Shown: positions 60,173 through 61,960 of the stretch, one piece after another
How positions within the stretch are numbered: the first letter of the stretch is position 1
How the letters are laid out: every line of letters starts with the position of its first letter
Assembly: GCA_947501695.1 (NCBI GenBank)
Contig: CANMWO010000001.1
Location: 868,001-932,000, forward strand
Source of the DNA: an uncultured Sphingomonadaceae bacterium
Lineage (GTDB): Bacteria; Pseudomonadota; Alphaproteobacteria; Sphingomonadales; Sphingomonadaceae
DNA: 64,000 nt
Direction: 5' to 3'
The notes under the pieces: model-generated
Told to the model about the DNA's origin: nothing
Seen by the model: the letters and a program-made list of their open reading frames with translations, nothing else
Database searches by the model: none
Translations under genes and position numbers: made by a program

Positions 60173-60246
60173 GCGGGTGTAGCTCAATGGTAGAGCAGAA
60201 GCCTTCCAAGCTTACGACGAGGGTTCGATTCCCTTCACCCGCTCCA
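60173..60246 (+). tRNA. tRNA-Gly (anticodon TCC), CCA encoded
   Basis: GCGGGTG acceptor arm pairs with CACCCGC; GGGTTCGATTCCC T arm; CTTCCAA anticodon loop. Confidence 0.96.
60202..60246 (+). repeat. Left 45-bp direct repeat (attL-like) = 3' part of tRNA-Gly
   Basis: CCTTCCAAGCTTACGACGAGGGTTCGATTCCCTTCACCCGCTCCA identical to 61916-61960. Confidence 0.95.
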
Positions 60247-60300
60247 CCGCAGAAAACTGCTAATTATTGGATATTTTTCCCAAGCGTTTTGGGCGCATAG

Positions 60301-60321
60301 TGGGGGTAACCTTTACCCCCA
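60301..60321. repeat. Inverted repeat containing TGGGGGTAA
   Basis: TGGGGGTAA-CCT-TTACCCCCA, perfect 9-bp arms. Confidence 0.85.
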
Positions 60322-60369
60322 AAAACCATGTATAGTGTTGATTTTTGGTTCTTTTCGATCAGTGCCTCA

Positions 60370-60392
60370 TCATAAGCTTACCAAGCTTATGA
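60370..60392. repeat. Inverted repeat with perfect 10-bp arms
   Basis: TCATAAGCTT-ACC-AAGCTTATGA. Confidence 0.85.
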
Positions 60393-60577
60393 CTACCCCA
60401 AGAAGGCAAGTGGCAAAAATTGAGATTTTAGCGTCCTTTTAACAATGATTGAGTTCTTGCCCGATTTAACTGGCACGAAGCTAGGGCGCTCTTATTGGAC
60501 GCCATCTGGTGTGTCTGCGATATCACGAAAGCGGAGTATTAGTTTGGTCAGCGTTCATAATTAGCTATAGATGAAGT

Positions 60578-61600
60578 ATGACAGAAGAAGAATTCAGCCA
60601 GATACTCGACCAAACATTTTGGAAATATTCTCTCGCAAGAACCCAAAAGATAAAAGATGTTAATCGGAAATTCGTCCACTACACATCGTTTGACGCTGCC
60701 ATCTCGATTATTGGGAAAAAGGAAATATGGCTTAGAAATGCGCGCGTAATGAATGATTATTCAGAGATTGCGCATGGAGAATCCTGCATCCGTTTTTGTC
60801 TCATAGACAATCAAGAGTTGGCAACACGCACTAAAGCAGTGTTGGAAGGTATAGTGGCTGGCTTATATGATCGGGCAGTGCATTGGTTTTTTGAACGGAT
60901 GCAGCACCGCTTAAGATACACTTATTTGCTTTCGATCTCTGAACATGGGCCACTTCACATTGGCCCCGGAACCGTCGATGAAGAATCGGAATTTGGACGA
61001 CTGTCTATGTGGCGGGCTTATGGTTCTTCAGGCGGCGTGGCATTGATATTCAATCAAGACCCTATAATGGATCCGCGCGACGCCCTACCGGCATTTGTCA
61101 GTCCAGTATTTTACGGAAATCCAGACGAGTTCTCAGTCCATTATTCTAACATGCTGAACCAATTGGAAGCAAACACCGAAGCGCTCAAACAGGTTGATCC
61201 AGAATTGATATGGGAAAATATGGCAACATTTCTTCATTTCTCGATTCTGTCATGCAAACATCCCGGATTTAAAGAAGAACGGGAGTGGCGGATAACATAT
61301 AGCCCTGAACCGGGAACAGAAGGTATCAGCGATGAGGAATTTAATAATAACAATCTGATCCAGAGAGAATTTCGTTCCGTCGATGGAATCCCACAAAGAA
61401 TCTATAAGATACCACTTAAAAAATATGGAGAGGAAGCCGATCAAGATATTTCGCTGTCGCGTATTCTCAATAAATTGGTTATAGGGCCGACAGCCTTTCC
61501 GGCAGTGGTAAACGATGCTTTGGTTTTTGAGATGCTGAAATCTGGGTTTTCCGCGGAGCAAATCAAGATCGCAGTATCACAAATTCCGATGCGATTATAA
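60578..61600 (+). CDS. DUF2971-like protein (mini-island cargo)
   Basis: FVHYTSFDAAISIIGKKEIWLRNARVMNDYSEI...YTYLLSISEH...EFGRLSMWRAYGSSGGVALIF resembles the DUF2971 pattern. Confidence 0.78.
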   Translation: MTEEEFSQILDQTFWKYSLARTQKIKDVNRKFVHYTSFDAAISIIGKKEIWLRNARVMNDYSEIAHGESCIRFCLIDNQELATRTKAVLEGIVAGLYDRAVHWFFERMQHRLRYTYLLSISEHGPLHIGPGTVDEESEFGRLSMWRAYGSSGGVALIFNQDPIMDPRDALPAFVSPVFYGNPDEFSVHYSNMLNQLEANTEALKQVDPELIWENMATFLHFSILSCKHPGFKEEREWRITYSPEPGTEGISDEEFNNNNLIQREFRSVDGIPQRIYKIPLKKYGEEADQDISLSRILNKLVIGPTAFPAVVNDALVFEMLKSGFSAEQIKIAVSQIPMRL

Positions 61601-61800
61601 ATCTCTTCACACTGAAAGCCGTGCACCTGTGATTTCAATAGCAGAGTTTAAGCGTGGCTTCGCGCAACGCTTTATCGTTACAGGATTGACGTCCGCTTTT
61701 GCGCCCATAGTGGATTTTCAAAGATGATTTAGCGATATGTGAATGTCAGTTCTGCAATCTCCTAAATTACTGATAAATAGGTATATTATGGATAGAGGCA

Positions 61801-61821
61801 GTGGGAGTAAAATGGGGGTAA
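61801..61821 (+). repeat. Tandem TGGGRGTAA motifs near the right end
   Basis: GTGGGAGTAA-A-ATGGGGGTAA. Confidence 0.7.
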
Positions 61822-61915
61822 TGGAAAAAGAATATCCTTACTTTTCAATCATTCACAAGGTTTCTATAGAACCTTTTTAGGTCAAAAAATGGCAGAAAAC
61901 TGCGGTATGGACGGC

Positions 61916-61960
61916 CCTTCCAAGCTTACGACGAGGGTTCGATTCCCTTCACCCGCTCCA
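61916..61960 (+). repeat. Right 45-bp direct repeat (attR-like), truncated tRNA-Gly 3' fragment
   Basis: 45/45 identical to 60202-60246; no tRNA 5' half precedes it. Confidence 0.95.

What the first reader, a model, noticed from the sequence alone, without database searches (positions are those of the whole stretch)
60202..61960. Integrase-less 1.7 kb mini-island integrated at tRNA-Gly(TCC), flanked by perfect 45-bp att-like repeats
The 3' 45 bp of an intact tRNA-Gly (60202-60246) recurs identically at 61916-61960, where no tRNA 5' half is present. This is the standard footprint of site-specific integration into a tRNA 3' end with the tRNA restored. The element is only 1,714 bp (one repeat plus interior) and holds a single ORF with no recombinase. 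That suggests a cis-mobilisable or satellite-type element using an integrase in trans, or the remnant of a larger island.
Basis: partly seen in the sequence, partly recalled or inferred. Interest (0 to 1): 0.85.

Follow-up and report, generated by a model that had tools for sequence, protein, structure and literature searches.

The report
Integrase-less tRNA mini-island with swappable cargo
Next to a tRNA gene sits a 1.7-kb foreign DNA island that has kept the landing marks of an integrating element but not its integrase, and its single gene lies between two palindromic sites at which related species have cleanly swapped in other genes.

Summary
In detail: a perfect 45-bp tRNA-Gly 3' repeat (60202-60246, 61916-61960) encloses 1,669 bp with one gene (DUF2971) and no recombinase. 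The interior is A+T-rich (42.6% G+C against 50.1 +/- 1.9%), and its protein is in none of 32 other species of the genus. The locus is a genus-wide hotspot, so this is an insertion, not an old duplication. Two layers are visible. (1) The ends carry arm-type repeats (TGGGGGTAA at 60301, 60313 and 61813, an 11-bp-spaced pair at 61802-61821) like those at both ends of intact P4-type (DUF4102) islands of the genus; one such integrase uses this same tRNA. The integrase gene is gone, and the genome has no intact one of that type. (2) The DUF2971 gene lies between the window's only two copies of a palindromic site family, A (60508-60541) and B (61686-61720). Such A'-cargo-B units form ordered arrays across the genome. 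Three sibling species share both ends of another integrase-less island at this tRNA but carry unrelated cargo between A' and B. Best reading: an integrase-less island chassis whose cargo was exchanged by site-specific recombination at A/B, resembling Acinetobacter pdif modules. Mobilisation in trans remains unproven.

The parts
60173..60246 (+). intact tRNA-Gly(TCC); its 3' 45 bp form the left repeat (attL core 60202-60246)
   Evidence: ARAGORN; repeat
61916..61960 (+). right copy of the 45-bp repeat (attR core), no tRNA 5' half
60249..60260 (+). GCAGAAAACTGC, end-proximal 12-mer (left copy)
   Evidence: only two copies in 64 kb
60301..60309 (+). arm-type repeat TGGGGGTAA, left end, direct
   Evidence: same motif class upstream of P4-type integrases
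60313..60321 (-). arm-type repeat TGGGGGTAA, inverted, 8 nt before an ATG (60330), as before the int start in intact islands; no int ORF follows
60508..60541 (-). A-type palindromic site (spacer CGTGAT), left border of the cassette
   Evidence: best A hit of the 64-kb window, 19.4 bits against 1.5 for the next
60578..61600 (+). cargo gene: 340-aa DUF2971 protein, function unknown
   Evidence: 449 homologues; AF2 model pLDDT 91.5, no PDB match at E <= 0.001
61686..61720 (+). B-type palindromic site (spacer TGCGCCC), right border of the cassette
   Evidence: best B hit of the window, 31.2 bits against 4.6 for the next
61802..61821 (+). direct arm pair TGGGAGTAA-AA-TGGGGGTAA, right end
   Evidence: only such pair in the window, none in 388 kb of the same genome; intact islands have a like pair 74-81 bp before attR
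61892..61903 (+). GCAGAAAACTGC, end-proximal 12-mer (right copy)

Best explanation
A two-layer mobile structure. Outer layer: the two ends (att core plus arm-type sites) of a tyrosine-integrase island of P4 type that entered the 3' end of tRNA-Gly(TCC) and kept the tRNA whole. Its integrase gene has been lost, so it can now move only with an integrase from another element. Inner layer: a DUF2971 gene carried as a cassette between two palindromic recombination sites with near-identical arms (CTAATGTCCGCTTT) but different spacers: A (CGGGAT, 6 bp; CGTGAT in this copy) and B (TGCGCCC, 7 bp). Proposed working: a Xer-like tyrosine recombinase, probably the ~208-aa catalytic-domain-only one whose gene lies between two B sites, joins A with A and B with B, so the segment between them is replaced while the flanks stay. 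This replaced the island's interior, integrase included, with one gene. Shown: the repeats, the arms, the sites, their order, and cargo differences bounded by A and B between species. Inferred: which recombinase acts, that the swap removed the integrase, and present mobility.
For: Insertion. P4-type ends: TGGGGGNNA 25 times in 7.5 kb upstream of 30 DUF4102 integrase genes against 7 in 49 kb of control, 3 in the island against 0.13 expected; five intact islands of the genus carry a direct arm pair 74-81 bp before attR; a DUF4102 integrase lies directly behind the same tRNA-Gly 3' end in G013. Cassette layer: the A and B hits are the only strong ones in the window and flank the gene; in the genome 25 of 46 neighbouring site pairs are A'..B units against a mean of 9.0 (maximum 17) in 5000 strand shuffles; junctions between adjacent units are fixed-length B-linker-A' composites (43-44 bp, 15 of 15); spacers near invariant, also when sites are found by arms alone. 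Cargo swap: G018, G026 and G001 share the tRNA-side ~105 bp up to A' and the right ~85 bp after B, with no blastn or tblastx similarity between the cargos and no integrase match listed at these places (the list was cut at weak matches); a second slot shows the same for G026, G028 and G030. Recombinase: copies in six species are homologous from B to B' (~757 bp) and not beyond; XerC/D control loci have no sites, 0 of 12.
Against: No empty site of the same species and no excised circle was seen. The island's arm geometry is not identical to that of the genus's P4-type islands (arm pair 11 bp apart instead of 12, left arms 54 instead of ~113 bp from the tRNA, 45-bp att instead of 14-17 bp), so the original integrase may be of a sister type. 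No trace of the integrase coding sequence remains. The outer arms of the island's own A and B sites are degenerate. Homologues of the ~208-aa recombinase on plasmids of other genera do not sit between matching inverted sites, so the enzyme-site link rests on this genus alone. Swaps by homologous recombination in the shared ends are not excluded.
Confidence: 0.6

Rival explanations
1. A working satellite-type mini-island: it never needs its own integrase and is excised and integrated by the integrase of a P4-type island or phage that uses the same tRNA-Gly.
For: Both ends keep perfect 45-bp cores, arm sites and a shared 12-mer. Integrase-less mini-islands with shared ends recur at this tRNA in at least three sibling species. 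Integrases using this tRNA exist in the genus (G013), and a Mesorhizobium phage carries a 43-bp identical site beside its integrase.
Against: The own genome has no intact P4-type integrase. The att fragments of the sibling mini-islands are decayed to about 15-18 bp, which suggests immobility there. The same ends were not found elsewhere in the genus or in 400 genomes of the family.
Confidence: 0.25
2. A plain decayed island: a larger P4-type island lost its middle by ordinary deletion, and the palindromes around the DUF2971 gene are incidental repeats or terminators.
For: Loss of integrase genes from islands is common (general knowledge); outer arms of the sites are degenerate.
Against: The A and B sites are the only strong ones in 64 kb and stand in the genome-wide order A'-cargo-B. 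Sibling cargos change at these sites. Departures in the arms are almost never compensated (1 of 59, 0 of 44) while the loop is invariant, unlike a terminator or RNA hairpin.
Confidence: 0.1
3. REP/REPIN-like extragenic palindromes spread by a single-strand transposase, unrelated to site-specific exchange; the ordered pattern reflects hitch-hiking.
For: About 50 B copies, intergenic and palindromic, many in inverted doublets.
Against: Doublets have fixed orientation over several kb, the spacer is conserved, a tyrosine recombinase gene lies between two B sites in six species, and whole cargos are swapped at the sites.
Confidence: 0.05

Closest known systems
tRNA-integrated genomic islands with tyrosine integrase (P4-type/DUF4102 islands; Islander-type footprint)
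   Same: tRNA 3' end as core, tRNA kept whole, displaced 3' fragment marks the far end, arm-type repeats at both ends
   Different: no integrase gene; 1.7 kb; 45-bp core instead of the 14-17 bp seen in intact islands of this genus
pdif (XerCD dif) modules of Acinetobacter plasmids (PMC13141974)
   Same: gene modules bounded by inverted core sites of two arms plus a short spacer; single modules replaced between pairs of sites with the same spacer
   Different: chromosomal; each site has two copies of one arm rather than distinct XerC and XerD arms; two fixed spacer types of 6 and 7 bp; a small recombinase gene itself lies between such sites; adjacent modules join by a double site B-linker-A'
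Integron gene cassettes / CALINs
   Same: arrays of mobile single-gene units separated by conserved palindromic sites, near a tyrosine recombinase
   Different: no attC R/L box structure recognised by eye, genes in either orientation, exchange bounded on both sides, recombinase not IntI (TIGR02249 far below cut-off)
Cis-mobilisable or satellite elements that use a helper integrase
   Same: ends kept, no recombinase
   Different: no helper identified and no sign of recent movement

Membership tests
tRNA-gene integrated genomic island | direct repeat of the tRNA 3' end at both borders with the tRNA kept whole | tested here: met
tRNA-gene integrated genomic island | interval absent or different in relatives | tested here: met
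   0 of 32 other species have the gene; interval varies
P4-type (DUF4102) island | own P4-type integrase gene next to the tRNA | tested here: not met
   no such ORF in 60173-61960; no intact one in the genome
P4-type (DUF4102) island | TGGGGGNNA arm repeats at both ends, direct pair before attR | tested here: met
   spacing and distances differ somewhat
Satellite or cis-mobilisable element | excised and integrated by a helper integrase | not testable with these tools
   needs excision assay; no helper in this genome
pdif/XerCD module | sites made of distinct XerC and XerD binding arms with a 6-bp spacer | tested here: not met
   both arms are copies of one sequence, spacers 6 and 7 bp
pdif/XerCD module | modules bounded by inverted sites and replaced between sites with the same spacer | tested here: met
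   by sequence comparison only
Integron cassette | IntI integrase | tested here: not met
   nearby recombinase is 208 aa, catalytic domain only; TIGR02249 20.7 bits against cut-off 265
Integron cassette | attC site structure | not tested
   only the consensus was inspected by eye

The most novel reading that the evidence does not exclude
The genus carries an undescribed chromosomal cassette system, a natural recombinase-mediated cassette exchange. Single genes or small operons lie between two incompatible core sites (same arms, different spacers) and are swapped as units at many loci by a mobile catalytic-domain-only tyrosine recombinase. Integrase-less tRNA mini-islands such as this one serve as docking chassis for it.
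Probability: 0.45. Interest if true: 0.85.

Novelty: new variant of a known kind. Interest (0 to 1): 0.68.

Why it matters
If right, it explains how islands with no integrase come to carry changing cargo: the landing part and the cargo part are separate systems. It would add a chromosomal functional counterpart of pdif modules in Alphaproteobacteria, and a natural example of exchange between incompatible sites. It would also suggest a role for a small tyrosine recombinase family with thousands of members (at least 8000 homologues scored).

Tried and rejected
Old local duplication: rejected, interval absent in relatives. DUF2971 as part of a known defence system: no PADLOC hit; structure model good but no match at E <= 0.001 in PDB or the viral library, so function stays open. 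DUF2971 as a tRNA-associated gene in general: few of the 60 loci scanned in other genomes have a tRNA near, and only one of 80 has an A-type hit. Closest chassis elsewhere: whole interior against 401 family genomes finds only B sites and short chance matches; pattern tRNA end + AAAACTGC finds two unrelated places. Plasmid search with the interior: none. Hairpin or terminator function of the palindromes: rejected by lack of compensatory change and an invariant loop. General rule that the ~208-aa recombinase is flanked by inverted sites: not seen in six plasmid homologues.

Full report
What was checked. The 45-bp repeat, the intact tRNA-Gly(TCC) and the absence of a recombinase are all as described. 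The interior is 1,669 bp, with 42.6% G+C against 50.1 +/- 1.9% for stretches of the same length in the window. Its only credible gene encodes a 340-aa DUF2971 protein.

It is an insertion. In all 33 genomes of the genus the tRNA-Gly is matched (in a few drafts only as contig-end fragments), and the EF-hand gene that follows in the window is found in nearly all, usually 0.3 to 14 kb downstream with different genes between. In G031 it lies about 1 Mb away. The DUF2971 protein is in no other species of the genus. The tRNA is therefore a hotspot. The exact empty site of this species was not available, because one genome per species is held.

The ends belong to a tyrosine-integrase island. DUF4102 (P4-type) integrase genes occur in 27 of 33 genomes, mostly directly behind tRNA genes. 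Upstream of many of them stand repeats of the form TGGGGGNNA: a direct pair 11-12 bp apart and one inverted copy just before the integrase start. Counted independently of the finding, the motif occurs 25 times in 7.5 kb upstream of 30 such genes against 7 times in 49 kb of control; in this strict form it is present in 10 of the 30 loci. The mini-island has three exact copies against 0.13 expected (P about 3e-4) and the only direct pair in the window; 388 kb of the same genome, chosen for other reasons, has none. Five intact islands of sibling species carry a direct arm pair roughly 8-28 kb downstream of the integrase, 74-81 bp before a short tRNA fragment, which marks their right ends. The mini-island's right end has the same order and orientation. 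Its geometry is not identical: pair spacing 11 instead of 12, left arms 54 bp rather than about 113 bp from the tRNA, and a 45-bp instead of a 14-17-bp core. The original integrase may therefore have been of a sister type. One DUF4102 integrase does use this very tRNA in the genus (G013). At the left end an inverted arm is followed by an ATG at 60330, but the integrase reading frame is missing. The genome's only DUF4102 hit (C3:606017, 254-aa open frame, at tRNA-Ser) has no catalytic-domain hit beside it.

The gene is a cassette. Around the DUF2971 gene lie two palindromes. A weight matrix built from sites elsewhere in the genome finds them as the only strong hits of the 64-kb window: A at 60508-60541 on the minus strand (19.4 bits, next 1.5) and B at 61686-61720 (31.2 bits, next 4.6). 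Both sites have arms of the form CTAATGTCCGCTTT in inverted orientation. They differ in the spacer: TGCGCCC in B and CGGGAT in A. The genome has about 50 B sites of the long form. They are ordered. The unit is A' - cargo - B, and adjacent units are joined by a composite B-linker-A' of constant length (15 of 15). Of 46 neighbouring pairs, 25 are such units against a mean of 9.0 and a maximum of 17 in 5000 strand shuffles. Arms-only searches give the same two spacers in 32 of 41 cases. Arm departures are almost never compensated, which argues against an RNA or terminator hairpin and suits a protein-bound core site.

Cargo changes at these sites. G018, G026 and G001 carry, at the same tRNA-Gly, islands without a recognised integrase, with homologous left ends (about 105 bp, up to A') and homologous right ends (about 85 bp after B, then CCTTCACCCGCTCCA or a close variant). 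Between A' and B the cargos share no detectable similarity at DNA or translated level. One is a single 659-aa gene, one several genes and one a 345-aa gene. In G001 the cargo change falls at or next to the spacers of both sites. A second slot before the EF-hand gene shows the same in G026, G028 and G030: flanks 92-99% identical where shared, cargo unrelated, with homology ending at the site edges.

A candidate enzyme. Tyrosine recombinases of about 208 aa (PF00589 only) lie between a B site ~96 bp upstream and a B' site at the stop codon. In copies from six species the homology runs from B to B' and stops there, so this is itself a mobile unit of ~757 bp. XerC and XerD loci have no such sites (0 of 12). 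Sites are abundant in G000 and G031, which have this recombinase, and absent in G008, which lacks an intact close copy. The link is by association only, and homologues on plasmids of other genera lack matching flanking sites.

Reading. I take the mini-island as an integrase-less chassis from a tyrosine-integrase island whose interior was replaced by an A'-DUF2971-B cassette. The steps shown are the repeats, arms, sites, order and cargo differences between species. The steps inferred are the enzyme, the loss of the integrase by the exchange, and any present mobility. The mechanism resembles that proposed for pdif modules of Acinetobacter, where a module is replaced through two recombinations at sites with matching spacers (PMC13141974). 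It is not a member of that family, because the arms are not distinct XerC and XerD sites. It is not an integron by its recombinase. I found no description of this site family in the paper searches, but that library is partial and few of the listed papers were read.

The function of DUF2971 remains open: 449 homologues at E <= 0.001, a confident structure model, no match in solved structures. Names are withheld for these genomes; a 55%-identical homologue is named Parasphingorhabdus sp., so a sphingomonad is likely (inference).

Noticed in passing
own genome C1:1783037-1791175 (L163, L173): Array of A'-cargo-B units on both sides of a 208-aa tyrosine recombinase gene, with the arrays pointing to the gene from left and right.
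   Followed up: partly
L056 (G025) 605-641 and 6672-6745: A tRNA-Gly 5' half (37 nt) is left beside glpD and the intact tRNA lies 6 kb downstream: an element inserted with the opposite polarity, duplicating the 5' part of the same tRNA.
   Followed up: no
L059 (G001), tRNA-proximal 2.4 kb (608-2978 in the orientation of the tRNA): Two integrase-less mini-islands in tandem behind tRNA-Gly, each with one gene, separated by 17-18-bp tRNA fragments.
   Followed up: partly
L099 (Mesorhizobium phage vB_MseS-P1) 6-48: A 43-bp perfect copy of the tRNA-Gly att sequence next to a phage tyrosine integrase.
   Followed up: no
L321-L326: Most of six homologues of the 208-aa recombinase on plasmids of other genera have a hairpin right after the stop codon, different in sequence in each.
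   Followed up: partly
L134 (G353) 4300-4760: A gene start with repeated CTGTGCAG motifs ahead of a CACCCGCTCCA fragment; possibly an integrase of another type using tRNA-Gly (by eye only).
   Followed up: no
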